This document shows positions 1,845 through 25,385 of a stretch of 44,564 nucleotides of DNA, piece by piece. The first letter of the stretch is position 1; every line of letters starts with the position of its first letter. The notes beneath the pieces are model-generated. The model made no database searches. It was not told the DNA's origin and saw only the letters and a program-made list of their open reading frames with translations. The position numbers and the translations under genes were made by a program. The DNA is from Microcaldota archaeon (lineage in GTDB: Archaea > Micrarchaeota > Micrarchaeia > Anstonellales > J096): assembly GCA_015522475.1 (NCBI GenBank), contig WAMF01000012.1:1-44564 (forward strand), in the 5' to 3' direction.

Positions 1845-2972
1845 TTATACAAATAAGGCTTTGCCTTTTCCAACGAGGTAAACTGCCAAATATAGGGGAA
1901 AGCGCTTCAGCTCGCCTTTCTTTGCCTCTATATCCTCTTTTAAGAGCTCCACCTTTTTCACGTCTTCGAGCATTTTAATTTTTACGGGCTCGTCAGAGAA
2001 GACAATGGCCTTTTCCACTTCAAATCCCTCGAGGTTTTTTATGGGCATAACCCTAAAACCTGTGCTCCCGTGTATGCTGTTTGGCATGCGTATAAGCCTT
2101 TTGATGTCGTATGTGACAGCTCCATCTACGTCGATGCTGTGTATCTTCATAGCCTCTCCAATAACTGAGAAGCGCTCTATGAGCTTTTTGGCTCTAAGTC
2201 TACTCCATATACCCTCTTTGATGCCTTCGGCGAAGACTCGCGCTTCCTCTTTTGTTATGTTTCTATATATACGTCGAGGGTCTGCTTCTAAGATTTTGAG
2301 CGCCCGTCTGGCGAACCTCCCTGCATAACCTTCCCCTGTGGGCTTTGGTCCTCGTATTAAGCCACTCTCTTCCTTTGTAAATAGGCGCGTGTAGTCAAAG
2401 CCCCTTCCACTTACGTATTCGACGATTTTCCGCCGCTCATTTGAAGAAAGCTCTCTGAACACTTCATCCCACACATGTATATGGAAACCCTTATTGCCTG
2501 AAAATACAGCCAGGGTTTTCTTGGCTCCAAGCTCTTCCTTTATAAGATCTAAGAGTTCTGCTGCCTGCGCCTGCACGGCTTTAAGAGATTCTAAGCTCCC
2601 TTCTTCTGCGTCGAGGTCGAAGACAAGGTTAGCCCCTTGCCAGCCTTTTTGTTCCATGGGTAATGAGGGTCCTTCATAATATGCGATGGAATAACTTATG
2701 TAATGAGGTGTCTCATTGATGAGAAATGAACGAAGCTCATACGTGTCCTCGAAGGCTAGGTGCCGCCTCTCAATTTTCTTTTTATAGCCTATGCCGAACT
2801 CCCTTCGTTCTATGCTTGGCACGACGAGCTTGGCCTTTTTGTAATACTCTGCCAAGAGTGCATTGAATACAGCGTCGCTCCTTTTTTCCTCTGGACTTCT
2901 CTCTGCTTCCTCCCTTTCTCTGAACGAGAGGGCTTGCTTTAACTCTTTAGCTTTCGCGTCTATCTTTGCCAT
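1845..2972 (-). CDS. priS: DNA primase small (catalytic) subunit PriS
   Basis: This is the catalytic subunit of the archaeo-eukaryotic replicative primase, which makes primers with its partner PriL. The metal-binding pair is D119-L-D121. The second motif is SGNKGFH at 158-164. The third region is a D281-V-D283 pair followed by a conserved basic strand RLIRMPNS that ends in STGF (about 292-306). All catalytic signatures of the family are present and the length (375) is normal. The gene overlaps the end of priL by 26 bases, and AGGAGG lies 7 bases before its ATG, so the two are probably translated from one mRNA. Confidence 0.93.
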   Translation of the reverse strand: MAKIDAKAKELKQALSFREREEAERSPEEKRSDAVFNALLAEYYKKAKLVVPSIERREFGIGYKKKIERRHLAFEDTYELRSFLINETPHYISYSIAYYEGPSLPMEQKGWQGANLVFDLDAEEGSLESLKAVQAQAAELLDLIKEELGAKKTLAVFSGNKGFHIHVWDEVFRELSSNERRKIVEYVSGRGFDYTRLFTKEESGLIRGPKPTGEGYAGRFARRALKILEADPRRIYRNITKEEARVFAEGIKEGIWSRLRAKKLIERFSVIGEAMKIHSIDVDGAVTYDIKRLIRMPNSIHGSTGFRVMPIKNLEGFEVEKAIVFSDEPVKIKMLEDVKKVELLKEDIEAKKGELKRFPLYLAVYLVGKGKALFV

Positions 2973-3888
2973 TCTTACGCCTCCTGCCGTACTGCATAGG
3001 GTTTTTTATGCCACAGTTTTGCACACATAGGCCATACCCCCTTATCTTGTCACATGAAGGCATGGTGTACCTTCTTTTCTTTATGTGTTCGACTTGGTAG
3101 CGCGTTATCCTCTCCTTGAAATCCGGCAACGGTTCATACACTTTGACTATTTCGTCGACGCTGTAGCCTTTATTTACCAAATAGACTGCTAGTACCCATC
3201 TAGCTGAGTGCCCAAGATTTTCGTGCTGTTCTATTCTCTTCAAGAGGGCTTTTATGCAAGGAGGAAACGCCCCTTGATTCTTGGTAGAGAATCTTACGCG
3301 TCTTTTGGGTAAGCTTTCTTTGACTCTCTTTGCAAAGTCTTCCGCATCTTTGTCTTGGGATTTGGGTTGTGTTGACAGCAAGTTTTTGAGTGCCTCTTCG
3401 ACGATGCGCGCAAACCTTCTCCAACTCATCTCCACCTCGCCGTTCTCCAGAGAGAAATAAAAAAGGCTGTAATCTGGGCTTTCCGGTGCATGCTTGAGAA
3501 AGTCCACGACGTGCATGTGCACTCTCTTATGCTTATCGGCGCTTTCGTTTTCATCGTTTCTCACTGTCCTGAAGCGTAAGTGAAGGGCTTTTGCCATCTC
3601 TTCAACTTCTTTGTCATCTGCTTGAGAAGAAAATGCCTTAGAGTAAGCGACGGCTATTCTTCGCGTTATGTATGGGTTGGCAGCTCTAGCCATTATGAAG
3701 CGCTCAGCTAAGAACACGCGACCAAATGCCTCTTCCAGCTCAGGAGTCCACTTCTTCGGCAGCTCAATTTCTCCTGTTTTTATAGCATGAATCATTCTCT
3801 CAGCCGCTGCCTCATACTCGTCGTAGTTTGGTTTTCTTTCCTTGGCAAGCTTGGGCAGCACACCGAACAAGACGCGCGTGAATCCCAC
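2947..3888 (-). CDS. priL: DNA primase large subunit PriL
   Basis: This is the regulatory, iron-sulfur subunit of primase. Four cysteines that would hold the 4Fe-4S cluster are visible: C211 (in FPPCIKALL), C279, C288 and C292 (in PSCDKIRGYGLCVQNCG). The N-terminal half is helical, as in known PriL. The predicted start is a GTG at 3888. A box A at 3909-3918 lies 25 bases upstream, so the message is probably leaderless. The last 26 bases overlap priS, which points to coupled production of the two subunits. The gene diverges from the coiled-coil gene at 4048. Confidence 0.93.
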   Translation of the reverse strand: MGFTRVLFGVLPKLAKERKPNYDEYEAAAERMIHAIKTGEIELPKKWTPELEEAFGRVFLAERFIMARAANPYITRRIAVAYSKAFSSQADDKEVEEMAKALHLRFRTVRNDENESADKHKRVHMHVVDFLKHAPESPDYSLFYFSLENGEVEMSWRRFARIVEEALKNLLSTQPKSQDKDAEDFAKRVKESLPKRRVRFSTKNQGAFPPCIKALLKRIEQHENLGHSARWVLAVYLVNKGYSVDEIVKVYEPLPDFKERITRYQVEHIKKRRYTMPSCDKIRGYGLCVQNCGIKNPMQYGRRRKNGKDRRES

Positions 3889-4820: not shown

Positions 4821-7709
4821 TCACTCTTTCATGTGCTTTGCTTTTTGTATTGGAGGTTTACGGGGAGCACTATGTTCATCTCTTTTTGTTATCTCTTCTC
4901 CGTCTAGCAGTTCGCCCTTTTCTTCTATACCTGCACTTGCGTTTGCACTTGCGCGTTTGCTTTTAGTGCCATATACACTAGCAGCTATGCTTTTTATGTC
5001 TCTGTCATCTTCTAGCTTAAACATCTTCACTATCTCGTCAAAGTGGTTCTCATGGATGAGGTAGGTCTTGTGTGCTAGACATAAATATGCTAAGAATATT
5101 TTTGCCGCTGTTTTTTGCATGCTTTCGTCACTAAGCGATTGAATTATATATATTCCATTTCTAACAATAGCACCTATTTTTCCTTCACTTATAACCAAGT
5201 TCTCATTTTGTTCCTTTTCAATTTTCTTTAGTATAAATCTGCCTATTTCTTCAATATTTTCTTTATAGTTGGTTCTGCCAGACAATGCATTATTCAACTT
5301 CTCCTTTTTACTATTACTTATGTACTCTTTCTCAATCTCTTCAACCCATTCTTTAAACAGCTCAAACCTCTTTTCTACATCTGCTTCGCGAATCATTCTT
5401 GCAATGTACGTTTGGTATGGAGGTTCTGCTGACTTTGGCTCACTTTTTTGTTCTTCTTTATTCTCCACCTTTTCCTCTTCGGGTGGCTTGCTTTCTATAT
5501 TTGTTTCTGTCTTTGTCTTGCTAACGTTAGCATTAGTTTCCAAGATCTGTGTTTCAGCATTCAAATCGACTTCTTCTTGTTCTTTAATCACTTGCGTCTC
5601 AGCATAGGGATCAACAATCTTATCTCTCTCTATATGATCTTCAATATTCTCGATTTTTGTAACTTCGTGCGGATACTGCTTAGCTTGGTAGTCCTCAAGT
5701 GGTGGTTTTGGATTTGGGGTTGGGCTGAGCTGAGGAGAGTCTCCCAGTTCTTTTTCAGCCCTTAGATATGTCATTAATGCCTTTGTAGTATAGTCGGCGA
5801 GCTTGTCCGCCCCTCCTTCAACTAATAGTATAATGTTAGGCTCTATCTCCTCTCTGTATATGCGTTGCCTACGGCCGTCATCTTCTGGGTCCACGCTAAT
5901 CGCGTGAACTACTCTGCCAACAACATCTCTAATCTGGACGTCGAACAAGTCAATGATGTTGACAGGGCTTCTGGTCCATCTGCTTGGCAATTCCCATTCG
6001 TAGTATTCATCTTCTCTTCCATCTTTTTTTAGATGTGTTACCCGGTGAAGCTTCGCTTTTGTCGCATAGTCAATAATAAGCGCCGCAACATGCCCTCTGT
6101 GCTCGTCGACAAAATCTTTCACAACTTCTCTAACCGCTTCCGTAGCCCATGTGTCTATGTCTGGGCTAAGCTTCGCTTCTAGCCTGCTCATCAGTTTATC
6201 CCATGTGCCAAAACCAAACGTCTCATTTATGAATGTTTTGCCATGCTCTTTCATCGTTTCTGCAAAATAATCCGGCACATCTAGAATTTTGACATCAGTG
6301 TCATTTGCAGCATCATTATTAAGGTCGGTTTGACTTATAGAAGGCTCTACAGATATATTCTCGAGCTTTTCTCTTGGTTTTATGGATATCACATCTTCTC
6401 CATTATTAAATATGTCTTCTGCTGCCTTTATCTTTTCTTCTTTCTCATCTAAATCAAAATTCCATTTTTCTTCATCCTCAAATTCTTCTGGGAGGGTTTC
6501 TTCCTCTAATTGGTCCAGCATCTCTTTTTCTATTTCCAAACCTGCTTCGGAAATAAGGCTTTCTCCTGCTCGTATGCCCGCTCTTTTCAAAGCATCGGCT
6601 ATCCTGTCGTATGTATCAACGTTCTCTTCTTCTAGGTATATAAAGCGTCCCGCAGCTATGAGCCTCTGGATGTTCTTTTTGGGTTTATCAACTTGTGCTT
6701 TTACTATAAAGTCGGATAGGCTCTCGAGCTCTTCGTCATCTAAGCTGTTCAGGAAGTCTTTTTCTTTTTCAAAGGCTTTGAGCTTAATTTTGGCGGCTAT
6801 GTCTTGAGCCTTGCTCATAAGTAACGGACGACTACTTTCAAACCTCTGTTTGCTAGCAAGCTTGAGAAGCTCATAGACTGTTGAAACACTTGTGTCACAT
6901 ATCTCGACGTACGTTTTTGCAGTCTCTAGTCTAAAGGCAGAGGGCAGCTGTTTGTCAAATACGATGCTTCTCAGCAAAGCCTGTCCTTTTTTTTTGTTGT
7001 CCTTGGCAAGACTGAGTATCTCGCTGCTTTTCTCTTCCAGAACTTTTTCAATTATTTCCTGCCTTATTACTTCGTAGTCTTCGCTTGCTTCCCTCCCAAG
7101 TTCATCTACTAATTTTTTATATGTCTCGAGTATGTGGCCTTGTTTTTCTATAAAATCATCTATGCGCTTTCTCAGTGCTTTTTCTCTCAACGAGCGGGAG
7201 AGGGCTGGACTTGCAGCAATACTCTCGACGAGGTATGGTTGAGCTCTTCCTTTTTCAACGACTTCTTCCAAAATTGTCTCTGCTTCATCAGCTAAGCTTT
7301 CGTCTATAATAAGCATGCCATGGGGTGGATGGCGTATGCTTTCTACAATGTCAACAAGCTCTGAGACACAGCCATGTTTGCCGAGCCCGTCTATAATAGA
7401 GTGAAGCAGCTCTTTGGTTTCGGTGTCCATCAACGAGTTAGGTGGTCTGCCTTCTCTCAATAGGGGCAAGAGGAACTGATGTGTATATACTACGACGAGA
7501 TTTTCTCTGGCTTTGCCCTTTGTGAGCTCTTCATAACCCTTCGATGAGAACTCTTCTTTTGCATAGGTCCATACTTGACTTGGCTTAACCTTTTCGTATC
7601 TTACGGCTTTCACAGCCTCGTCAAAAAGAACGTCTTCAGCCTGCTTTGCAGCTTTTACACTAGTCTTAAACACCTCCCAGTGTATGTTGTAGGATTTAGA
7701 CTCTGCCAT
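4821..7709 (-). CDS. large multidomain protein of unknown function
   Basis: I do not recognise this 962-residue protein. No signal peptide or membrane segment is seen, so it is probably cytoplasmic. Residues 1-400 are alpha-helical with irregular repeat-like helices. A very acidic stretch covers 393-450. A compact middle domain at about 475-655 has a conserved-looking core (WELPSRWTRSPVNIIDLFDV, then NIILLVEGGADKLADY). A Pro/Glu/Lys-rich linker at 657-765 carries short repeats of AETQ (PYAETQVI, NAETQILE). A helical C-terminal domain covers 765-935. The ATG at 7709 has a box A about 26 bases upstream. The gene stands alone, convergent with its left neighbour. Confidence 0.85.
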   Translation of the reverse strand: MAESKSYNIHWEVFKTSVKAAKQAEDVLFDEAVKAVRYEKVKPSQVWTYAKEEFSSKGYEELTKGKARENLVVVYTHQFLLPLLREGRPPNSLMDTETKELLHSIIDGLGKHGCVSELVDIVESIRHPPHGMLIIDESLADEAETILEEVVEKGRAQPYLVESIAASPALSRSLREKALRKRIDDFIEKQGHILETYKKLVDELGREASEDYEVIRQEIIEKVLEEKSSEILSLAKDNKKKGQALLRSIVFDKQLPSAFRLETAKTYVEICDTSVSTVYELLKLASKQRFESSRPLLMSKAQDIAAKIKLKAFEKEKDFLNSLDDEELESLSDFIVKAQVDKPKKNIQRLIAAGRFIYLEEENVDTYDRIADALKRAGIRAGESLISEAGLEIEKEMLDQLEEETLPEEFEDEEKWNFDLDEKEEKIKAAEDIFNNGEDVISIKPREKLENISVEPSISQTDLNNDAANDTDVKILDVPDYFAETMKEHGKTFINETFGFGTWDKLMSRLEAKLSPDIDTWATEAVREVVKDFVDEHRGHVAALIIDYATKAKLHRVTHLKKDGREDEYYEWELPSRWTRSPVNIIDLFDVQIRDVVGRVVHAISVDPEDDGRRQRIYREEIEPNIILLVEGGADKLADYTTKALMTYLRAEKELGDSPQLSPTPNPKPPLEDYQAKQYPHEVTKIENIEDHIERDKIVDPYAETQVIKEQEEVDLNAETQILETNANVSKTKTETNIESKPPEEEKVENKEEQKSEPKSAEPPYQTYIARMIREADVEKRFELFKEWVEEIEKEYISNSKKEKLNNALSGRTNYKENIEEIGRFILKKIEKEQNENLVISEGKIGAIVRNGIYIIQSLSDESMQKTAAKIFLAYLCLAHKTYLIHENHFDEIVKMFKLEDDRDIKSIAASVYGTKSKRASANASAGIEEKGELLDGEEITKRDEHSAPRKPPIQKAKHMKE

Positions 7710-14414: not shown

Positions 14415-15761
14415 TTAATCCACTTTTAGCAGGCGGAGTATGAGCTTGCTTTTTATGACGTCAAGGATTCCTTTATTCTCTTTATATGGCCAAGGGCAAC
14501 CTGCAAGCCTTTCAAATAGGCTAAGATGTGCCTCACTTATAGGGCGGTGTAGGGGTTGCGCAGGTATGTAAAGCTCTTCCTTCTTAGCTTTCTCGAGGAC
14601 ACATAGCTTTTTATCCAGCGTTTCTAAAGGCAGAGCCACATGCCCATAACGTCTTAATTGGCTATAAGCAGGACTGCCCACTATTTTGGCAAGCTTTTCC
14701 ATCTCAGCTCTTTCAAAAGCAAGGGGTGAGAAAAAGATGCGCTTGTTGCCCAAGTTGAGCCTTACATAGGGTATGGCTCTTTTCTGCAACTCAACTTTGG
14801 CTTTCTTCGACGTCTCTCTTGTAAGGGCTGTGATGGCAAGGGCATGCCTTTGGCCTTTCTTCACCCTCTCCTCTTCCTTGGCTTTTCCGGCTTTTCTTCC
14901 TGTTTCAACCGTGGATGAAACAGCATGCATAAAGACGGGCTGTGGCCCGGGGAAGGCCACGGGCCCAAGAGATAGTCTCCCAACCTTGCGAAGCGCGCTC
15001 ATAGCCAGCCTCGCTCTTTTCACGAAGCGGCTCCAGTTCCCCTTTTTATTCTCTCTTAGCCTCTTTAAAAGCCTTTTCATGGGCTCGTTGAGCTCTTCTT
15101 CGCTAATTATTCTGCACAAGAGCCCTGTCTTGGAGTTGTATGTAAAGGGCAAGCGCACAATTCTGCGCGTGTCTTTCGTGACTTTTTCGTCTATGGCTAC
15201 GTGTTTGCTTATACTCTCTACTATCTCTGCATAGGTCTCTTTGGCGTACACTTCCCTTTCTTCTGGCAGAGCAGGATACTCTTTTATAACGTCTTTAAAT
15301 GAGAGGTGAAAGCCCTTTGCTCCGGAGAAGGCAATGTATTGAAGGACCCAGCCTTTTTCTTTGGCAATGGATAAGAGGCGCTTGGCTTCATTCCTTGCTT
15401 TTTCTATGTTTTTATCGAAGCTGCTCTCTACAATATCTATATCAAAGAAAAGGTCCATGCCTAAAAACAGCGTCTGAAAACGCCTCTCCTTGCTGCTTGA
15501 CTCTATTCTATGAGGGTTAAGGAAACGGCCGATAGAGTAATATGCGTCAAGGTAATTCTTACTATAGACGTAGCTGTATATGGACCCCCACGACGTAAAG
15601 CGCCGTTTAACTTTGACAAAGCTACCCCACTTGTTTACATATCTTATGTGTCTGAACCGCGGAAAGGCTGGCAGATAAGAAAAAGCTGGTTCAAGCGAAG
15701 CGCTAAAAGGCAAAGTCGAAGGCAAGGAGGAGCTTACTTTCTTACGAATACGTGCTTCCAT
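14415..15761 (-). CDS. second archaeo-eukaryotic primase (AEP) catalytic protein
   Basis: This 448-residue protein carries the AEP catalytic set: D107-I-D109 in LFFDIDI, SGAKGFH at 146-152, and D191 with the downstream strand RRIVRLPFTYNSKTGL (199-214). The spacing matches priS at 1845. Overall sequence differs, and about 230 C-terminal residues are extra, with a basic segment (about 225-320) followed by an uncharacterised region. No PriL partner is adjacent. AEP paralogs are known in translesion synthesis, repair and mobile-element replication; which applies here is not known. The start overlaps the small gene at 15734-15973 by 28 bases, so the two are probably coupled. Confidence 0.82.
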   Translation of the reverse strand: MEARIRKKVSSSLPSTLPFSASLEPAFSYLPAFPRFRHIRYVNKWGSFVKVKRRFTSWGSIYSYVYSKNYLDAYYSIGRFLNPHRIESSSKERRFQTLFLGMDLFFDIDIVESSFDKNIEKARNEAKRLLSIAKEKGWVLQYIAFSGAKGFHLSFKDVIKEYPALPEEREVYAKETYAEIVESISKHVAIDEKVTKDTRRIVRLPFTYNSKTGLLCRIISEEELNEPMKRLLKRLRENKKGNWSRFVKRARLAMSALRKVGRLSLGPVAFPGPQPVFMHAVSSTVETGRKAGKAKEEERVKKGQRHALAITALTRETSKKAKVELQKRAIPYVRLNLGNKRIFFSPLAFERAEMEKLAKIVGSPAYSQLRRYGHVALPLETLDKKLCVLEKAKKEELYIPAQPLHRPISEAHLSLFERLAGCPWPYKENKGILDVIKSKLILRLLKVD

Positions 15762-15973
15762 ACGCCAGAATCTATGTAGCGTCTAAGCGCCTCTCTCTTG
15801 TTTTTGGCCCTCGTTCTCTTTAATAAGTTTAGGAGTTGAGTTCTAACGCTCTTTTCGTTGCCGGGCGTTATTTTTGTAGAGAGCCATTTATGAATGGACT
15901 GGTAGTTGTTAAGGTTCGGCTTGCCTTTAAATATGCCAAACAGTGCATCCCAAAAACCCATGTGCTCACCCAT
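15734..15973 (-). CDS. small basic protein upstream of the second primase
   Basis: A 79-residue basic protein (75 residues from the second ATG at 15961) with an amphipathic N-terminus (GFWDALFGIFKGK) and a helical core rich in Lys and Arg. I know no family for it. The promoter box A at 15991-16000 lies about 25 bases before it and it overlaps the primase-like gene by 28 bases, so it is the first gene of that operon and a candidate partner or DNA-binding accessory. GGTGA sits four bases before the second ATG. Confidence 0.6.
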   Translation of the reverse strand: MGEHMGFWDALFGIFKGKPNLNNYQSIHKWLSTKITPGNEKSVRTQLLNLLKRTRAKNKREALRRYIDSGVWKHVFVRK

Positions 15974-16578: not shown

Positions 16579-16587
16579 TTTAAAAAT
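16579..16587 (+). promoter_or_regulatory. box A of the PPR-like gene
   Basis: TTTAAAAAT is centred 26 bases before the ATG at 16609, the textbook spacing for a leaderless archaeal transcript. Confidence 0.65.
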
Positions 16588-16608: not shown

Positions 16609-18465
16609 ATGGCCCGTGGGCGCTTCAAGAATAAAGAGACTCATTCGAGAGAAGACTTGTATGGCGGCAGAAGAAAGGACTTTATGCGCAACAACCCCCT
16701 CAGCGAGAGAAAACCAGAGGAAGGGCGATATAAGAACTTATATCATATACTGGAGGAGATATACAAAGGGAACGTGAGGCACAATCTTGAGGCCATGAAA
16801 GAAGCTGCCAAGAGAGATATATCAGAGAAAGAGAGGTTCTCTAAATCCTATTCAAAGAAGATTTCGGAAATTGTAAAATTCTTTGTCAGAAATGGCAGAT
16901 ATGGGTATGCTCTAGAGATATTAGATGTGGCGATGGAGGTAGATAAGAATGACATTGTATTTAAAAGTCAGTACTTAGATATACTAGCAAAATCGATAGG
17001 GGACCCTGTTAAAGTATGGGGATTTTTTGAAAATATAGAGAACCCTGACTCTGTGACATATTCAACGATGATAAGCTTCTACGCTGATTTGTATGAGAAG
17101 ACGAAAAGCGACAAATACTTCAAAAAAGCAGAGGAGTTATTTACCGAAGCTAAAAGCAGTAACAAGATTGATGTTGGTGTTTATAATAGCTATCTAAAGC
17201 TGCTGACAATCGAAGGCGAAGAGAAGCGAGCAGAGGAGCTACTGAAGCGGATCAAAAACCCCACTCCTATAACCTACTCAACGATGATAAGCTTCTACGC
17301 TGATTTATATAAAAAAAGAAGGGACAATGAATACTTTGAAAAGGCAAGAGCTCTCTTTAACGCATCTAAAAACCATAATAAAGTTGACATTGGTGTTTAT
17401 AGTAGTTACCTAAAACTGCTGACAATTAAGGGTGATGAGGAACAGGTAAAGGAATTATTCGAGCAGATTAAGAATCCAAACTCAATAACCTACTCTACAA
17501 TGATAAGCTTCTATGCTGATCTATATGAGAAGACGAAAAGCGACAAATACTTCAAAAAAGCAGAGGAGTTATTTGCCAAGGCTAAAAACAGTAACAAGGT
17601 TGATGTTAGTGTTTATAATAGCTATCTAAAGCTACTGATAATCAAAGGTGACGAAAAAACGTTAGAAAAAATCTTCAAGGAGATTAAGAATCCAAACTCA
17701 ATAACCTACTCAACGATGATAAGCTTCTATGCTGAGTTGTATGAGAGAACTAAGAATGAAGAATATCTCGAAAAGGCAAAGGCGTTATCTACTAACGCTA
17801 AAAGAAATAACAAAATTAGTGTTGGTGTTTATAATAGCTATTTGAAGATGTTGACGGTTAAGGGTGAGAAGAAAGAGATTGAGGAGTTTTTCAACCAGAT
17901 TAAAGACCCTGATAATGTTACGTATCGTACCTTCCTAACATATTTGTACAAGCGTGAAGAGTATGCAGAAATTGTAAAATTTATGAATGAGCTTAAAGAA
18001 AGAGGAAATTTACCCCTCTCTGGTTTTATTGAACTATATATTACTGGCTTGGAGGCCCTAAGAAAGTTGAAGAGGTGGGATGAACTAGAGAAGGAATTAG
18101 AATCACTCGAAAAGTTAGTCGAGGGTAAATCTCTAAATGAGGATATGCTTGTGCATTTGAAGGTGATAAAAGCCTATTCTTTGATGGTAAGAGGGAGAAA
18201 ATCTGAGGATGCTAAAGAGAAAGAAGCTCTTCTACTTGAAGCCAAAAAATTATTTAGGCATCTAAGGGATACTATTAGCAGAGATTCGCCCCATTACATA
18301 AGAGTGCTCGTAGGATGGGTCTTCATAAATGATGATCTTCGTGATTATGAGTTACTTAAGAAGGACTACGACGAGCTGATCGATGCATTAGAGGTGGCTT
18401 TGGATAGAGGAGAAGGTAATCAGATAGATATCGAGAATGCTTTGGACATTCTCCTTGATTTATGA
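16609..18465 (+). CDS. pentatricopeptide-repeat-like protein
   Basis: The 618-residue protein starts with a basic tail (1-45) and has four consecutive units of exactly 72 residues (145-432) followed by degenerate repeats. Each unit is NPxSITYSTMISFYADLY, a second helix such as YFKKAEELFAKAK, then VxVYNSYLKLLTIKGD and a last helix ending EIK. The YSTMI and YNSYLK first helices, paired with A/LF second helices, match PPR motifs, with a longer motif of about 42 and a short one of about 30 residues alternating. PPR proteins bind single-stranded RNA and are mainly eukaryotic. TPR or a related helical repeat is the alternative. The 3' end overlaps the convergent HAD gene by 6 bases. Confidence 0.75.
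   Translation: MARGRFKNKETHSREDLYGGRRKDFMRNNPLSERKPEEGRYKNLYHILEEIYKGNVRHNLEAMKEAAKRDISEKERFSKSYSKKISEIVKFFVRNGRYGYALEILDVAMEVDKNDIVFKSQYLDILAKSIGDPVKVWGFFENIENPDSVTYSTMISFYADLYEKTKSDKYFKKAEELFTEAKSSNKIDVGVYNSYLKLLTIEGEEKRAEELLKRIKNPTPITYSTMISFYADLYKKRRDNEYFEKARALFNASKNHNKVDIGVYSSYLKLLTIKGDEEQVKELFEQIKNPNSITYSTMISFYADLYEKTKSDKYFKKAEELFAKAKNSNKVDVSVYNSYLKLLIIKGDEKTLEKIFKEIKNPNSITYSTMISFYAELYERTKNEEYLEKAKALSTNAKRNNKISVGVYNSYLKMLTVKGEKKEIEEFFNQIKDPDNVTYRTFLTYLYKREEYAEIVKFMNELKERGNLPLSGFIELYITGLEALRKLKRWDELEKELESLEKLVEGKSLNEDMLVHLKVIKAYSLMVRGRKSEDAKEKEALLLEAKKLFRHLRDTISRDSPHYIRVLVGWVFINDDLRDYELLKKDYDELIDALEVALDRGEGNQIDIENALDILLDL
17041..17904 (+). repeat. four tandem 216-bp units inside the PPR-like gene
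   Basis: Units begin at 17041, 17257, 17473 and 17689 with no length variation. Units 1 and 3 share an uninterrupted 51-base identity (17092-17142 and 17524-17574). Units 3 and 4 share their first 23 bases. A fifth, partial unit begins at 17905. The pattern points to fairly recent duplication or gene conversion. Confidence 0.85.
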
Positions 18466-19236: not shown

Positions 19237-19253
19237 CTTCTGTTATCATAGGT

Positions 19254-19265
19254 GTTTAAAAATAT
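19254..19265 (+). promoter_or_regulatory. box A of the methyltransferase-HD operon
   Basis: GTTTAAAAATAT predicts a start near 19286, followed by AGGTGA at 19290-19295 and the ATG at 19300. An upstream in-frame GTG at 19252 overlaps this box and is therefore not the start. Confidence 0.6.
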
Positions 19266-19299
19266 TTGTGTATTAATACTAGGCTACACAGGTGAAACT

Positions 19300-20514
19300 A
19301 TGTTGAAAGATGAGGCCAGTATAAAAAACTTTGATAGGTTAGTGAATAAGGTGACTAACGGTAAGCTTAGAGGTGGATCTATTTTGAGGCTGCCTGTATA
19401 TGCTTGGAAGAAATGGCACCTCCCTCTAGAAAAAGCTTACATTAGTAAGGGTAATAAGGCATATTGGGATGAATGGAAACACGCTGCACCTAATGTAGAG
19501 GTCGTATCTAAAGCAGCTATTGCCTCTGATATAGGCGACGCCAATGCAGAGATGAACAAACTTCTCGCTAGAAAAGTTGTTGAACACCTTCCTAAGAAGA
19601 AAGAGCCTTTGGTTATCTACGATGTCGGCGTGGGTAAGGGTGATACGTCTGCTAAGTTCTTAGGGGAATTATTCTCCCATAAACATGTTCCCGTTACACT
19701 TTACCTCTTTGATGTTAGTAACAAGCAGGGCTTAGAAGGTGTTGCCAAAGATATTAAGAAAAAGTTCGATGTGGATGTAAAGACCTTTGCTGAAGAAGAG
19801 GGTGATATGCTTATGCTGCCCAATGTACAAAGGGCTTACACTCTTCCTCCTGCAGATGTCGTTTTAGGGAATGCTAGTCTCCATCACACAAATACTTATC
19901 CTCTGACGCAAATCCGCGAAGTGTTAAACGAAAAAGGTTTATTGGGCATAGGTGAGTGGACCCATCCTATATGGGAAAATCCCGAGCTCTCTTACGTCTT
20001 TCTAGGCCTTCTTTCGCTCCAATATCAGACTAGGGCTTTAGAAGAAGTACTTAAATTGGCGAAAGATTTAATGATAACAAACGAAGAGAAATTTGATCTT
20101 TCGCTTATGACATACTTCTTACAACCACCCACTGTAACTGATCCAGAGGCATTAGAGGCTTTTAAACGAATCACCAATATGTTTGAGGTTATTATAAGCT
20201 CTTCCTACAAGGATTTCTCTCAAAAGGCATTTATCTCTGCTATAAATCATCGCCTCTCCGAATTAGCCGCTGATGAGTTAGAGGCCATATCTGCCTATAA
20301 AATCACAGAATTCTGGCTACAGACGCTAAGATTTGCTCTAGAAAGTGGTGCAGAATCGGGCATATGGTTCTGGGAAGGTCACCCCTCCAGAGCTAGGTTG
20401 AGGAGCATGCTCTTTGAGCACGGCTTTAACGTGCTGGTGGATACTACTATATATGAGCACGATGAAAAAAGGCGAAGCAACCTTAACACAATCATAGTCG
20501 CTGAGAAGCTCTGA
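19300..20514 (+). CDS. SAM-dependent methyltransferase-like protein
   Basis: The 404-residue protein has a class I Rossmann methyltransferase core: motif I VIYDVGVGKGDTS (D108, G110, G112, G114), an acidic end of strand 2 in LYLFDVS, ADVVLGNASLHHT for motif IV, and LLGIGEWTHP for strand 5. It has about 100 N-terminal and a long helical C-terminal part, so it is larger than simple family members. The substrate cannot be read from the sequence; the NASLHH motif resembles small-molecule or polyketide-type methyltransferases more than DNA ones. The start follows AGGTGA by four bases. An HD-domain gene begins 10 bases after its stop, so they form an operon. Confidence 0.78.
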   Translation: MLKDEASIKNFDRLVNKVTNGKLRGGSILRLPVYAWKKWHLPLEKAYISKGNKAYWDEWKHAAPNVEVVSKAAIASDIGDANAEMNKLLARKVVEHLPKKKEPLVIYDVGVGKGDTSAKFLGELFSHKHVPVTLYLFDVSNKQGLEGVAKDIKKKFDVDVKTFAEEEGDMLMLPNVQRAYTLPPADVVLGNASLHHTNTYPLTQIREVLNEKGLLGIGEWTHPIWENPELSYVFLGLLSLQYQTRALEEVLKLAKDLMITNEEKFDLSLMTYFLQPPTVTDPEALEAFKRITNMFEVIISSSYKDFSQKAFISAINHRLSELAADELEAISAYKITEFWLQTLRFALESGAESGIWFWEGHPSRARLRSMLFEHGFNVLVDTTIYEHDEKRRSNLNTIIVAEKL

Positions 20515-20524
20515 TAGTGAGAAT

Positions 20525-21703
20525 ATGGCAGTAGAAAAGTTCGGGAATCGTTTTAAGCAGAAGGTTAGTGATGTAAAAGCAGGGGCGACAAAGGCCTTAG
20601 TGACTATATACAAAGCTCAAGAAAAAGCCAAGAAGAGAAAGTCTGCCCATAATGCAGGGCACATGTTACGAGTGAGCGCAGCCATGAAGCAGTATCTGAG
20701 CGAGAAGGACGCAGATGATCGCCTGAAGGAGCTAGCAGAGTTTACAGGGCTCATCCACGACTTTGTGAGAAATCCTAGAGAAATCTCAGGTTTAAGTGAT
20801 GGTATTCTAACAGGTGAGTTGATAAGGTATATAAAAGACAAGGAGAGTTATAAGCCCAATGTAATTGCTATTATCTATGTCATAGACAAAAGTGTGGATG
20901 AATCTCTTGTAATTCAAGAAGTAAGAAGCCTCTATGAGGATATGGTAAGAGAGTTTCCAAAAGAGATGAAAGATTTGGAAGAATCTATTGAGAGTTTATC
21001 CAATGACGAAATCTCTGCCGTTGCCGATGCTATTATTATAAATGAGGGTGGTGTTGCTAGCATAAAGGCTTGGGCTGATAAGCAGGAAGATTGGAAGAGG
21101 CTTCTTCAATACGCTCTTATATATGGTGATAAGACTATTGAAGGCATCGGAGCTAACGTTGCCGTTAGGAGAGCTCAATTTGTCTCTGGAGAAAGGGTAA
21201 ATAATTCTGAGGATCTTGGCAGGATTTTTTCTCAGAGCGACAGGGATAGAATAGCAGCCTTCGCAGGTGAGAGTCTCTTGAGAATCTATGCCAAAAAGTC
21301 TGTGAAGGACTTCCCAAACGAACCCATTTTCAATAGGGCTATTGAAGAGGGGCGAAAACTGGAAGTGGAGATCTACAAAGCTGCCTTAGCTATGACTCTA
21401 AAACACTTGAACTTACCCTCGGAAAAAGCCTTTTGGCTTTGGTTGAGTGAGAAAGGTTATCCAAAGATAAATGAAGAAAAAATCCGCAAGAAGCTGGAGG
21501 AACGTTTTAAGGATGATGAAGGCTATACAGAGAGGGAGTTGAAGACTGAGTTAAGCAACGACTTCGTGAACGATGTGAGCAGGTTTATAGTGGGGCTAGC
21601 CTTGACACAGAACAAGGATGAAAAAGAAGTTGAGAGAGGGCACAGACTTCTCAAAGATATACATGACAAGACTCTTCGTGAGCTTACCCAGATAACGGGC
21701 TGA
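20525..21703 (+). CDS. HD-domain protein (putative metal phosphohydrolase)
   Basis: In this 392-residue protein the segment AHNAGHMLRV (H42, H46), then GLIHDFVRNP (H78, D79), and a later LIYGDKT aspartate give the H...HD...D pattern of HD phosphohydrolases, which hydrolyse nucleotides or cyclic nucleotides using metals. The rest is helical and unrecognised, with a basic N-terminus (1-40). It lies 10 bases downstream of the methyltransferase gene and shares its promoter, so the two proteins probably work in one process. The process itself is unknown; no nearby gene explains it. Confidence 0.7.
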   Translation: MAVEKFGNRFKQKVSDVKAGATKALVTIYKAQEKAKKRKSAHNAGHMLRVSAAMKQYLSEKDADDRLKELAEFTGLIHDFVRNPREISGLSDGILTGELIRYIKDKESYKPNVIAIIYVIDKSVDESLVIQEVRSLYEDMVREFPKEMKDLEESIESLSNDEISAVADAIIINEGGVASIKAWADKQEDWKRLLQYALIYGDKTIEGIGANVAVRRAQFVSGERVNNSEDLGRIFSQSDRDRIAAFAGESLLRIYAKKSVKDFPNEPIFNRAIEEGRKLEVEIYKAALAMTLKHLNLPSEKAFWLWLSEKGYPKINEEKIRKKLEERFKDDEGYTERELKTELSNDFVNDVSRFIVGLALTQNKDEKEVERGHRLLKDIHDKTLRELTQITG

Positions 21704-22176: not shown

Positions 22177-23259
22177 ATGGTAAGCGTAAATGTAAAAGCA
22201 CCAACAAACATAGCGTTAGTGAAGTACTGGGGCAAGAATCCCCTGTGGGAGAAGTTCCATATTCCCATGAAGAGCTCTCTTTCTTTTACCGTGGGCGATC
22301 TATACACGGAGACAACGCTTGAAGTGGAAGATGGCAGTGGAGAGCTCTCCTTCTACCTCAACGGCGAGGAGATAACACCCGAGAGAAAAGAGTTTGAGTA
22401 TGTGGACAAGTACATAAAAAAACTCTTTGAGCTCTTCCCTGAGACGAAAAAGTATAACTACCACGTCGAAAGCAAGAACAATTTCCCTACGGCAGCGGGC
22501 TTCGCTTCTTCTGCTAGCGGCTTTGCTGCTATGGCCAAGGCCTTGCAAGGGGCTATGAAAGAGCTGGAACCGCAGCTTTACGAGAAGTACTTTGCTGACG
22601 ATGCCAAGCTCAGTGTCTTCGCTCGTTTAGGCAGTGGTTCAGCTACGCGAAGCATTCCTTCAGAAGGAGGAGTTGTCATATGGCATAGAGGTATCGATCC
22701 TAATTATCCCTTTGGCCCTGAGGAAGTTAGCCCTTCTACTAAAGAGCATGTCATCTTTAGCAGCTATGCAGAATCTCTTTTCCCAGCTGAACACTGGCCG
22801 GAGCTCCGCATTATCTACACTAAAGTAAGGAAGGGAGAGAAGGCAGTGAAGAGCAGGGCTGGGATGAAGATGACTGTAAAGACAAATCCCCTCCATCGTC
22901 AATGGGTAGAGTATGAAGAAAGCGTTATGCTACCAAGGGTAGTGAATGCCATTAGGGAGAAAGATTTCGAAGCCTTAGCTAAAGACACGATGAAGCTTAG
23001 CAATGGTTTGCACGCCATGATGCTCTATACAGAGCCGCGCATTCGCTACTTAAATGATACATCTGAGCAGATTATAGATGCTGTGTTAGACTTAAACGAG
23101 AGCGAAGTAAAAGCCGCTTATACCTTCGACGCTGGACCCAACGCTGTTGTGTTTACTTTGGCAAAATACGAAAACGAGGTTAGCTCTCGTTTGGCCGAGA
23201 TCGTAGGTGAAGAAAACGTCTTTGTCACGAAGATGGGTAAAGGACCAGCGTTTATATAA
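22177..23259 (+). CDS. mvaD: mevalonate diphosphate decarboxylase
   Basis: A GHMP-family enzyme that converts mevalonate 5-diphosphate to isopentenyl diphosphate with ATP. The evidence is NIALVKYWGK (11-20), the phosphate loop FPTAAGFASSASGFAA (103-118), SGSATRSI with the catalytic-site R158, and AYTFDAGPNA with the catalytic D318. Having both the Arg and the Asp favours a true decarboxylase over mevalonate 3-kinase. The length (360) is slightly above usual. It is followed after 28 bases by phosphomevalonate kinase. Many archaea lack this enzyme and use a modified route; here the eukaryote-type route looks present. The stop codon lies inside a TTTATATAA element that may be the promoter for the next gene. 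Confidence 0.93.
   Translation: MVSVNVKAPTNIALVKYWGKNPLWEKFHIPMKSSLSFTVGDLYTETTLEVEDGSGELSFYLNGEEITPERKEFEYVDKYIKKLFELFPETKKYNYHVESKNNFPTAAGFASSASGFAAMAKALQGAMKELEPQLYEKYFADDAKLSVFARLGSGSATRSIPSEGGVVIWHRGIDPNYPFGPEEVSPSTKEHVIFSSYAESLFPAEHWPELRIIYTKVRKGEKAVKSRAGMKMTVKTNPLHRQWVEYEESVMLPRVVNAIREKDFEALAKDTMKLSNGLHAMMLYTEPRIRYLNDTSEQIIDAVLDLNESEVKAAYTFDAGPNAVVFTLAKYENEVSSRLAEIVGEENVFVTKMGKGPAFI
23250..23258 (+). promoter_or_regulatory. possible box A inside the decarboxylase stop region
   Basis: TTTATATAA covers the last sense codons and the stop of mvaD and would start transcription near 23280, just before the kinase ATG at 23288. Confidence 0.35.
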
Positions 23260-23287
23260 TGCGAATGGATGCTAAAGGGTGAAAAAG

Positions 23288-24361
23288 ATGGAAGTAACGT
23301 CGCCGGGTAAGGTGTTGTTTTATGGAGGTTATTCTGTATTGCTAAGAGGGCATATAAGCCTCTCCTTGGCTGTAGTGGATGAAGAAAGAAAGGGTGTAAC
23401 TGCTGCTTACGAAAAAGGCGAGCGCCGCATCATCTCCAAAGAATTCGGCATAGACCGCGAGCCCTCAGCAGAGAAAGCTGAGCTCTTAGACATCGCCTAT
23501 CTCGTTGGTGAGGCCTATCTGAAGAGCAGAGCTACCTTTGAACCTGTGAAGGTTGAAGTGGAGAACAGCCCCATCTTCGGCAGTAAAGAAGAGAAATCGG
23601 GACTGGGTTCTTCTGCCGCGGTTGTAGCTTCCACTATAAAGGCGCTCTTCGAAGCAAACGGCTACGACACTGCTCTCCATACAGAGAGCATTTTCAAGCT
23701 TAGCCAGATAGCCTATGCCATCTTTGCCAAGAAGATAGGCTCAGGTTTTGACATAGCCACAGCTTCAGTAGGAAAGAGCATAGTCTACTACCGTTACAAT
23801 CCAGAGGAAGTGAAGCTTAGCGAGAGCATTGATGAGACAGTAGAGAAGAGTATGGATGGCCCATGGAGTTGGGTTAAGGCAGAGCCTTTTGATGTTTCAG
23901 GTTTGGGCCTTATCGTCTTCAATATAAGGGGCGCTAAAACATCCAGCATCTCAGCAGTTAAAGCATGGAAGGAATGGAAGAAGAGCAACGAAGAAGAGTT
24001 TAAGGCTTTAATGAACAAGCAGGATGAAGTAGAGAGAAAAGCCATAGAAGCCTTAAAGGCCAGGGACTTCGCCGCTGTTAGGCAGTACACGCACGAGGCA
24101 AGGGTTGTGCATAGAGAGATGCAGGAGAAGATAAAAGCTATAGTGCCTGAGTTCGATCCCGTAGAGCCGGAGCCTCTTAGCCATATTATAGAAGAAGCGG
24201 AAAGTCTGCCTGGCATAGTGGCAGGAAGATGCCCGGGGGCTGGTGGCTGGGACAGCTTAGCCTTCATAACCGATGGAAGCAGCGTAGATATAGAGAGGAT
24301 CATCGAGGCAGGCGAAAAAGAGGGATTGAAGCTCTCGCCTTTGGATGTTAAGCTGATTTAA
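23288..24361 (+). CDS. phosphomevalonate kinase (GHMP family)
   Basis: Makes mevalonate 5-diphosphate from mevalonate 5-phosphate, feeding the decarboxylase encoded just upstream. Seen: SPGKVLFYGGYSVLLRGH at the N-terminus, the GHMP loop KSGLGSSAAVVAST (about 103-116), the GSGFDIATASVG block, and the C-terminal GRCPGAGGWDSLAFI. These match the eukaryote-type (ERG8-like) kinase also known in Sulfolobales. From the ATG at 23288 it has 357 residues; a GTG nine bases earlier is in frame, but GGTGA at 23278-23282 is placed five bases before the ATG. A T7 tract (24365-24371) follows the stop. Confidence 0.88.
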   Translation: MEVTSPGKVLFYGGYSVLLRGHISLSLAVVDEERKGVTAAYEKGERRIISKEFGIDREPSAEKAELLDIAYLVGEAYLKSRATFEPVKVEVENSPIFGSKEEKSGLGSSAAVVASTIKALFEANGYDTALHTESIFKLSQIAYAIFAKKIGSGFDIATASVGKSIVYYRYNPEEVKLSESIDETVEKSMDGPWSWVKAEPFDVSGLGLIVFNIRGAKTSSISAVKAWKEWKKSNEEEFKALMNKQDEVERKAIEALKARDFAAVRQYTHEARVVHREMQEKIKAIVPEFDPVEPEPLSHIIEEAESLPGIVAGRCPGAGGWDSLAFITDGSSVDIERIIEAGEKEGLKLSPLDVKLI

Positions 24362-24364
24362 GCC

Positions 24365-24371
24365 TTTTTTT
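24365..24371 (+). terminator. T7 tract after phosphomevalonate kinase
   Basis: Seven Ts begin four bases after the stop codon. Mevalonate kinase downstream has its own box A, so the message may end here. Confidence 0.45.
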
Positions 24372-24443
24372 ATTAAACATCTCAGTAGGCTTTAATTTTT
24401 GTTATGCCGTTTCACTGGTGTGATGATATAGCTAAACGATTGG

Positions 24444-24454
24444 ATTAAATAACC
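24444..24454 (+). promoter_or_regulatory. box A of mevalonate kinase
   Basis: ATTAAATAACC predicts initiation near 24473. GGTGG at 24480-24484 then lies four bases before the ATG at 24489. Confidence 0.5.
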
Positions 24455-24488
24455 TTCGCATTAATGGTTGGCCTTGGTTGGTGGAAAT

Positions 24489-25385
24489 ATGGCAGATGAA
24501 AAAATTGGTGTTGGCGTTGGATATGGAAAAGTGATTCTCTTTGGTGAACATTTCGTCGTGCATGGCTATGATGCCATCGTTGCCTCTTTGCCCTCACTTA
24601 AAACTGTCGTCGAAATTAAGGAAGGGCCCTGGAACATGGATGAGAAAGTAGTAGAGGCTTTTAAGCGTGTCCTCTTAGCTTTGGGTGTAGAAGGAAAGAG
24701 CTTCTCTGTCGTTGTTAAAGAGACTGTGCCCATTGGCCAAAATCTTGGTTCCTCAGCGGCTTTGAATGTTGCCTTTGCAAGGGCCGTGAATGAGCTCTTA
24801 GAACTGCGAAAGAGCGACGACGAAATAAACAAAGCGGCGTGGGAGGGTGAAGTCATTTTTCACGGAACGCCGTCAGGCATAGATAACTCTGCAGCGACGT
24901 ATGGAAAGCCCCTTGTCTTCAAGCGGTTGGGCCCCGGCAAATTCGACATAAAGCCCTTCAATGTAGGCAAGCCCCTCCACTTACTCGTTGTGAGCACTGG
25001 CCAGAATCTGAAGAGTACGAAGGAAACCGTCGCCTATGTAAGAGAGAAAAAGGAGCAGTATCCTGCTATGACGAATAGGGTTTTCGAGACTTATGGATTT
25101 CTTTTCAAGGAAGCCATAAAGGCAATAGAAGAGGGGGAGTTGCCTTACATCGGTTACCTCATGGATGTTGACCACGGCTTGCTAAGCTGCTTTAACCTCT
25201 CAACAGATAAAACAGAGCTGGCTAGACTGCTTTTACAAGAAGCGAGAGCATTAGGCTCTAAGATTACAGGGGGCGGAGCAGGCGGAAACCTCGTCTCACT
25301 CTTCGACAGCGAAGAAAAAGCCAAAGCAGCTGCTGAGCTTCTGAAAGCCCATGGCTTCAAGAGCTTCTATTCTGTGCTGGGCTGA
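24489..25385 (+). CDS. mvk: mevalonate kinase
   Basis: Phosphorylates mevalonate at position 5, the first step of the lower pathway. Seen: GYGKVILFGEHFVVHGYDAI (11-30), the ATP loop PIGQNLGSSAALNVA (81-95; most members have GAGLGSS or similar, here QNLGSS), HGTPSGIDNSAATYG with the expected catalytic Asp (D132), and GSKITGGGAGGNLVSL near the end. From the ATG at 24489 it has 298 residues, typical of archaeal enzymes. With the two genes upstream this completes mevalonate to isopentenyl diphosphate in one cluster. A TTG start 21 bases upstream is less likely because it precedes the ribosome site. Confidence 0.93.
   Translation: MADEKIGVGVGYGKVILFGEHFVVHGYDAIVASLPSLKTVVEIKEGPWNMDEKVVEAFKRVLLALGVEGKSFSVVVKETVPIGQNLGSSAALNVAFARAVNELLELRKSDDEINKAAWEGEVIFHGTPSGIDNSAATYGKPLVFKRLGPGKFDIKPFNVGKPLHLLVVSTGQNLKSTKETVAYVREKKEQYPAMTNRVFETYGFLFKEAIKAIEEGELPYIGYLMDVDHGLLSCFNLSTDKTELARLLLQEARALGSKITGGGAGGNLVSLFDSEEKAKAAAELLKAHGFKSFYSVLG

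What the first reader, a model, noticed from the sequence alone, without database searches (positions are those of the whole stretch)
16609..18465. Archaeal PPR-like protein with strictly periodic repeats
The YSTMI/YNSYLK first helices and paired second helices in a 72-residue double unit look like pentatricopeptide repeats, an RNA-binding family that is mainly eukaryotic and organellar, with few bacterial cases. An archaeal example with its own well-placed promoter would be unusual. Reading the PPR code positions (residue after the Tyr, and the last residue before the next motif) gives S/D, N/T, S/D, S/N, S/D, N/N, S/S, N/D through units 1-4. Under the established code this would favour a partly specified RNA of about G-x-G-A-G-C/U-x-U. 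That last step is inference.
Basis: partly seen in the sequence, partly recalled or inferred. Interest (0 to 1): 0.85.

Follow-up and report, generated by a model that had tools for sequence, protein, structure and literature searches.

The report
Archaeal PPR repeat protein family
A tiny uncultured archaeon carries a genuine pentatricopeptide-repeat protein, a type of RNA-reading protein known almost only from plant and other eukaryotic organelles, and it belongs to a small family scattered through its phylum with its own tail domain.

Summary
The finding holds up. The ORF at 16609-18465 (618 aa) comes from a Candidatus Micrarchaeota genome. It contains four 72-residue double units (41+31 aa) followed by a ninth motif. 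It passes Pfam's curated PPR cut-offs (PPR_2 65.9 vs 30 bits; PPR_3 44.4 vs 25), and no TPR model reaches its cut-off. Its AlphaFold model (pLDDT about 90-97 over most of the array) best matches RNA-bound designer PPRs and maize PPR10. I found a 905-aa paralog in the same genome and relatives in about 20 of 301 Micrarchaeota genomes. Most relatives share a C-terminal helical cap of about 155 aa without a Pfam match; full-length matches to it were absent from 295 genomes of a methanogen phylum. Relatives' repeats are mostly 34 aa, the TPR length, with TPR-like Y11/A27 but PPR-like Y4, N/T5, I8 and final D/N. The published code gives roughly G-Y-G-A-G-Y-R-U, but this cannot name a target (at most about 12 bits, about 445 chance sites); the 41-aa motifs are non-canonical, and the "last" residue is also the helix N-cap. 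Archaeal PPR proteins are already counted in databases (49 in UniProt in 2024), so this is a new variant of a known kind. RNA binding is likely but not shown.

The parts
16609..18465 (+). 618-aa PPR protein gene
   Evidence: ORF; PPR_2 65.9 bits vs cut-off 30, PPR_3 44.4 vs 25
16579..16587 (+). possible archaeal TATA element, about 26 nt (centre) upstream of the ATG
   Evidence: TTTAAAAAT; 3 matches in the window vs 1.5 expected; weak
16609..16731 (+). residues 1-41, predicted disordered and basic N-terminus (net +5 over the first 40 residues)
   Evidence: pLDDT <50 for residues 1-41; charge
16843..17049 (+). residues 79-147, N-terminal helical hairpins leading into the array
   Evidence: helices 79-94, 98-111, 116-129, 133-141 in the model; the equivalent region scores as TPR in relatives
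17050..17265 (+). double unit 1: 41-aa motif (S5, last D) + 31-aa motif (N5, last T)
17266..17481 (+). double unit 2: 41-aa motif (S5, last D) + 31-aa motif (S5, last N)
17482..17697 (+). double unit 3: 41-aa motif (S5, last D) + 31-aa motif (N5, last N)
   Evidence: 80% DNA identity to unit 1
17698..17913 (+). double unit 4: 41-aa motif (S5, last S) + 31-aa motif (N5, last D)
17914..18018 (+). ninth PPR motif (NVTYRTFLTYLYKREEYAEIVKFMNELKERGNLPL), best single Pfam PPR_2 stretch
   Evidence: residues 434-469 match PPR_2 positions 1-36
17941..18462 (+). C-terminal helical cap, residues 445-618, conserved across the Micrarchaeota family, no Pfam match
   Evidence: alignments A2/A3; phylum search, 183.6 bits for this copy; no Pfam family (protein 10)

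Best explanation
The gene encodes a cytoplasmic pentatricopeptide-repeat protein. A basic flexible N-terminus leads into an alpha-solenoid of about nine PPR motifs, in which an extended 41-aa motif alternates with a short 31-aa motif. A helical C-terminal cap specific to Micrarchaeota relatives closes it. It most likely binds single-stranded RNA along the groove lined by the first helices, with residues 5 and last of each motif contacting bases, and acts without catalysis as a sequence-preferring RNA clamp that protects or remodels particular transcripts. The cap may seal the solenoid or recruit a partner. Shown by computation: PPR sequence class, solenoid fold, family, cap. Inferred: RNA binding (about 0.65), base-specific reading (about 0.45), a role in RNA stability or translation (about 0.35).
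For: Pfam PPR_2 and PPR_3 exceed their curated cut-offs, and the best TPR model gets 15.2 bits against a cut-off of 26.2. The leading sequence hits among solved structures are PPR proteins, mostly designed; best E about 1e-17. The AlphaFold model (mean pLDDT 82.7; about 90-97 over most of the array) has RNA-bound designer PPRs and PPR10 among its top hits (6een: TM 0.84 by target, rmsd 2.6, 344 columns). Family: a 905-aa paralog with PPR_2 101 bits and PPR 92.8 bits; a canonical five-repeat relative (G120) with PPR_1 179 bits; the cap in 15 genomes at E<=1e-14. Residue 5, masked when the motif model was built, is N/T/S in 24 of 37 well-scoring repeats against 14% background, p=2e-12 with repeats counted as independent. 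SD, SN, NN and ND have measured specificities G, A, U/C and U (PMC4837458).
Against: No RNA-binding data and no catalytic or known RNA-processing domain. The last residue of every motif is exactly the residue before helix A, so D/N/S/T there could be helix N-capping alone. The 41-aa motifs are longer than any standard PPR type. Several relatives have A, G or C at position 5. The array is nearly neutral (net +9 over 297 aa) and the cap is acidic (net -9). Motif-model seeds were chosen by hand, so position-5 enrichment is not fully independent.
Confidence: 0.62

Rival explanations
1. A PPR-shaped protein-protein scaffold: a TPR-derived solenoid that converged on PPR-like repeats and binds peptides or proteins, not RNA.
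For: Relatives carry true TPR matches next to PPR ones. Repeats are TPR length (34 aa in 33 of 42 spacings outside the window protein) with TPR-like Y11 (79%) and A27 (55%). D/N/S/T at the last position fits helix N-capping. Some family members lack code-like residues at position 5.
Against: The window protein passes no TPR cut-off. The masked PPR model finds only 3 marginal repeats in a set of ORFs that includes archaeal TPR proteins, against 95 in the family. N/T/S at position 5 is not a TPR feature (own knowledge). Top fold hits are RNA-bound PPRs.
Confidence: 0.25
2. A single-stranded DNA binder with the same groove chemistry, for example acting in replication; the gene lies among primase-related genes.
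For: A designed PPR (cPPR-Telo1, 5orq) was crystallised bound to ssDNA and is the second fold hit. A divergent primase small-subunit-like gene lies close by (14415-15761).
Against: The neighbourhood is not conserved: relatives sit beside unrelated genes, and the sister genome keeps the primase-like gene but has no PPR gene there. Natural PPRs characterised so far bind RNA (own knowledge).
Confidence: 0.08
3. A recently expanded, fast-evolving lineage-specific gene with little fixed function, for example a relic of a eukaryote-derived transfer.
For: No close ortholog of the 618-aa protein was found in 118 relatives. Units 1 and 3 are 80-83% identical in DNA, implying recent internal duplication. 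The genus relative lacks the gene at the matching place.
Against: The reading frame is intact, a third to a half of the codon changes between units are synonymous and third positions change most, and the cap is conserved across several families of the phylum, so the family is old in Micrarchaeota even if this copy is young.
Confidence: 0.05

Closest known systems
P-type pentatricopeptide repeat proteins (e.g. maize PPR10; designer dPPR/cPPR)
   Same: Tandem helical hairpins with Y4, N/T/S5, a hydrophobic residue at 8, A20 and a final D/N; same solenoid fold.
   Different: Motifs of 41 and 31 aa in this protein and 34 aa in most relatives, not 35; A at position 27 where PPR consensus has M (from my knowledge); family-specific C-terminal cap; no organelle.
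PLS-type PPR proteins of plants
   Same: Regular alternation of long and short motifs; the 31-aa motif has the length of an S motif.
   Different: Two-motif period (41+31) without a canonical P motif; no E, DYW or SMR domain found; the long motif is 41 aa, not 35-36.
Tetratricopeptide repeat (TPR) proteins
   Same: 34-aa period and Y11/A20/A27 in relatives; true TPR matches at the N-terminus of relatives.
   Different: Residue 8 is I/L/M/V in over 80% of repeats rather than G; residue 5 is mostly N/T/S; no TPR cut-off is met by the window protein.
Uncharacterised archaeal PPR entries (49 in UniProt in 2024, PMC11514114)
   Same: Archaeal proteins matching PPR signatures; this protein or its kin may be among them.
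   Different: I found no publication describing them, their cap or their spread in Micrarchaeota (open-access library only).

Membership tests
Pentatricopeptide repeat (PPR) protein | Tandem degenerate motif that matches curated PPR profiles | tested here: met
   PPR_2 65.9 bits (cut-off 30), PPR_3 44.4 (cut-off 25); NCBIfam PPR is below its cut-off (16.9 vs 20)
Pentatricopeptide repeat (PPR) protein | Right-handed solenoid of antiparallel helix pairs like solved PPRs | tested here: met
   AlphaFold model and Foldseek top hits: 5i9f, 5orq, 6een, 4m57
Pentatricopeptide repeat (PPR) protein | Typical motif length: 35 aa (P), 35-36 (L), 31 (S) | tested here: inconclusive
   Motifs alternate 41 and 31 aa in this protein and are mostly 34 aa in relatives. 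The 31-aa motif fits the S type; the 41-aa motif fits none. Length varies within the family and is not a strict criterion, so this marks a variant rather than an exclusion
Pentatricopeptide repeat (PPR) protein | Code residues (N/T/S at 5, D/N/S/T at last) | tested here: met
   All eight motifs of the array; enrichment across the family. The last position is confounded by helix N-capping
Pentatricopeptide repeat (PPR) protein | Sequence-specific binding of single-stranded RNA | not testable with these tools
   Needs a binding assay
Tetratricopeptide repeat (TPR) protein | Match to a TPR profile above its cut-off | tested here: not met
   Best TPR model TPR_15, 15.2 bits vs cut-off 26.2; relatives do match TPR at their N-termini
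Micrarchaeota PPR-cap family (defined here) | About 155-aa C-terminal cap with RK, AY and HYxRxLCGxVF-like motifs | tested here: met
   Alignments A2 and A3; this copy 183.6 bits. It was among the rows used to build the model; members not used to build it (G083, G124, G021, G119, G039 and others) scored 54-123 bits

The most novel reading that the evidence does not exclude
Micrarchaeota hold an archaeal branch of PPR proteins, with 34-aa motifs intermediate between TPR and PPR and a cap of their own, that reads RNA by the same two-residue code. It either arose from TPRs independently of eukaryotes or preserves a pre-eukaryotic stage of PPR evolution.
Probability: 0.25. Interest if true: 0.85.

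Novelty: new variant of a known kind. Interest (0 to 1): 0.55.

Why it matters
PPR proteins are treated as a eukaryotic, mainly organellar invention with sporadic bacterial cases. A family with intact, sometimes canonical repeats in very small archaeal genomes gives a simple setting for asking how PPRs arose from TPRs, and supplies short natural PPR arrays (about 300-600 aa, no organelle import) whose RNA code can be tested directly. It also suggests some DPANN archaea may regulate RNA with modular binders.

Tried and rejected
RNA target: the code readout carries at most about 12 bits, so about 445 chance sites in 0.91 Mb on both strands; no site search was worth running. Promoter: the TATA-like 9-mer is not rare, and the sigma-70 scan is at chance level. 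Operon clue: flanking genes (HAD hydrolase, unassigned ORFs) are not conserved next to relatives. Code-position conservation between diverged ortholog pairs: 11 of 18 identical against 35% elsewhere, p=0.03, driven by the last position (7 of 9) rather than position 5 (4 of 9), so inconclusive. No hit in viral contigs. The masked repeat model gave too few hits among TPR proteins to compare position 5 directly.

Full report
Where it is. The window is contig 12 of a 910-kb, 88%-complete genome in 23 contigs. Named relatives found through the protein's C-terminal region are Candidatus Micrarchaeota MAGs, and the genome has a full archaeal 16S rRNA. The ORF is as described: 16609-18465, + strand, 618 aa.

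The observation. Residues 148-435 are four tandem double units of 72 aa (216 nt), each a 41-aa motif followed by a 31-aa motif, and a ninth motif follows at 436-470. Units are 69-80% identical in DNA, with units 1 and 3 the closest, and half of the codon differences between units 1 and 3 are synonymous (16 of 32). This is a real, partly recent tandem expansion under coding constraint, not chance.

Is it PPR? By profile, yes: PPR_2 65.9 bits against a cut-off of 30, PPR_3 44.4 against 25, and the best TPR model 15.2 against 26.2. NCBIfam's PPR model falls just short (16.9 vs 20). Against the sequences of solved structures, the leading hits are designer PPRs at about 1e-17. AlphaFold with ten family sequences gives helix pairs throughout, with pLDDT about 90-97 over most of the array. 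Foldseek ranks RNA-bound designer PPRs first and has PPR10 among its best hits; 6een aligns over 344 columns with TM 0.84 (target length) and rmsd 2.6. A second model, of the 342-aa relative L011 (mean pLDDT 87, pTM 0.80), also has designer PPRs as its best fold hits, with consensus TPR arrays close behind.

The family. The same genome holds a 905-aa paralog (PPR_2 101 bits, PPR 92.8 bits), whose ortholog in a genus relative is 30% identical over 850 aa. Further relatives are mostly 280-520 aa and have a basic disordered N-terminus, one TPR-like hairpin, one to six PPR-like motifs and, in most, a C-terminal cap of about 155 aa. The cap has no Pfam match (protein 10). A seven-sequence cap model finds full-length matches in 15 of 301 Micrarchaeota genomes at E<=1e-14 (54-203 bits), across several families of the phylum. 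In 295 genomes of the phylum of the Methanothrix genome (G301), only weak partial matches appear (27 bits or less, within the first 50-97 positions). PPR_2 passes E 0.001 in 11 of 301 Micrarchaeota genomes against 2 of 295 in that other phylum, and in none of 14 reference genomes at that threshold. Adding PPR-only members (G065, G073, G069, G120, G097) gives about 20 genomes. The clearest member is a 302-aa protein in genome G120 with five near-consensus repeats such as VVTYNTMINAYGKAGEVADARELFDEAVMLGIAN (PPR_1 179 bits, PPR 165.5 bits).

What kind of motif. I built a repeat model with position 5 and the last position masked and aligned the family to it. Outside the window protein, 33 of 42 repeat spacings are exactly 34 aa. 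Y4 (73%), Y11 (79%), G15 (75%), A20 (87%), F24 (73%), A27 (55%) and G31 (83%) dominate. Y4, I/L8 and the polar residue at 5 are PPR-like; the 34-aa length, Y11 and A27 are TPR-like (this comparison with TPR and PPR consensus rests on my own knowledge). The same model found 3 marginal repeats in a control set of ORFs that includes archaeal TPR proteins against 95 in the family, so these repeats are distinct from ordinary archaeal TPRs.

Code positions. Residue 5 is N/T/S in 24 of 37 repeats scoring at least 15 bits (background 14%), and the last residue is D/N/S/T in 22 of 28 (background 20%). Seeds were hand-picked and repeats within a protein are not independent, so the p-values are guides only. 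In the structural model, the last residue is in every case the one immediately before helix A, where D/N/S/T are favoured as N-caps; only position 5 is clear evidence for RNA reading. Using measured specificities (ND=U, SN=A, SD=G, NN=U or C; PMC4837458) the array reads about G-Y-G-A-G-Y-R-U, where Y for NT and R for SS are guesses from position 5. The 41-aa motifs are not a standard type, and plant L motifs mostly do not read RNA (PMC7190159, title and abstract). At most about 12 bits of information means about 445 chance sites in this genome, so no target can be named.

Surroundings. The gene lies between a 79-aa ORF and a divergent primase-small-subunit-like gene on one side and a HAD hydrolase on the other. 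In the genus relative G001 the primase-like gene and the 79-aa ORF are kept side by side, but no PPR gene follows. So this copy was gained here or lost there, and its neighbours give no functional clue. A TATA-like element sits where a leaderless archaeal transcript would need it, but the match is not statistically notable.

How it most likely works. A PPR solenoid with no catalytic domain is best read as an RNA clamp that occupies a stretch of single-stranded RNA, thereby protecting ends, blocking structure or exposing a site, with the cap closing the solenoid or recruiting partners. The fold is near certain (about 0.95); RNA binding is likely (about 0.65) by analogy and from position 5; regulation of particular transcripts is inference.

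Known or new. A 2024 census counts 49 archaeal PPR proteins in UniProt against 227,968 eukaryotic (PMC11514114), so the presence of PPR in archaea is on record as a number. I found no paper describing these proteins in the library searched, though that library lacks subscription journals. What is new here is the Micrarchaeota family, its cap, its 34-aa hybrid motif and this protein's 41+31 architecture.

Noticed in passing
window 14415-15761 (-): 448-aa protein with only partial similarity to DNA primase small subunit PriS (NCBIfam 46 bits, far below cut-off; PDB E 7e-4), in addition to a regular PriS gene at 1845-2972 next to PriL (2947-3888). It is kept with the 79-aa ORF 15734-15973 in genome G001, so it looks like a second, divergent primase-like gene.
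   Followed up: partly
window 22177-25385 (+): Three consecutive genes matching diphosphomevalonate decarboxylase (above its NCBIfam cut-off), a phosphomevalonate kinase-like protein (below cut-offs) and mevalonate kinase (above cut-off): a clustered mevalonate pathway ending in a diphosphomevalonate decarboxylase.
   Followed up: partly
window 4821-7709 (-): 962-aa ORF with no match in Pfam, NCBIfam or the sequences of solved structures.
   Followed up: partly
L086 5883-6791 and 6826-8403 (-), genome G120: A canonical five-repeat PPR gene directly beside a second, 525-aa TPR/PPR-like gene on the same strand.
   Followed up: partly
L017 and L020 (genomes G065, G073): PPR genes in two genomes of one genus both lie beside a gene that looks like SAICAR synthetase (purC) on the opposite strand, suggesting conserved placement (gene name from my reading of the sequence, not tested).
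   Followed up: no
L014 24-716 (+), genome G053: An ankyrin-repeat-like ORF lies just upstream of this relative's TPR/PPR gene (by eye).
   Followed up: no
window 19252-21703 (+): Two adjacent ORFs (420 and 392 aa) without NCBIfam or Pfam matches; the first has methyltransferase-like and the second HD-domain-like sequence by eye.
   Followed up: no
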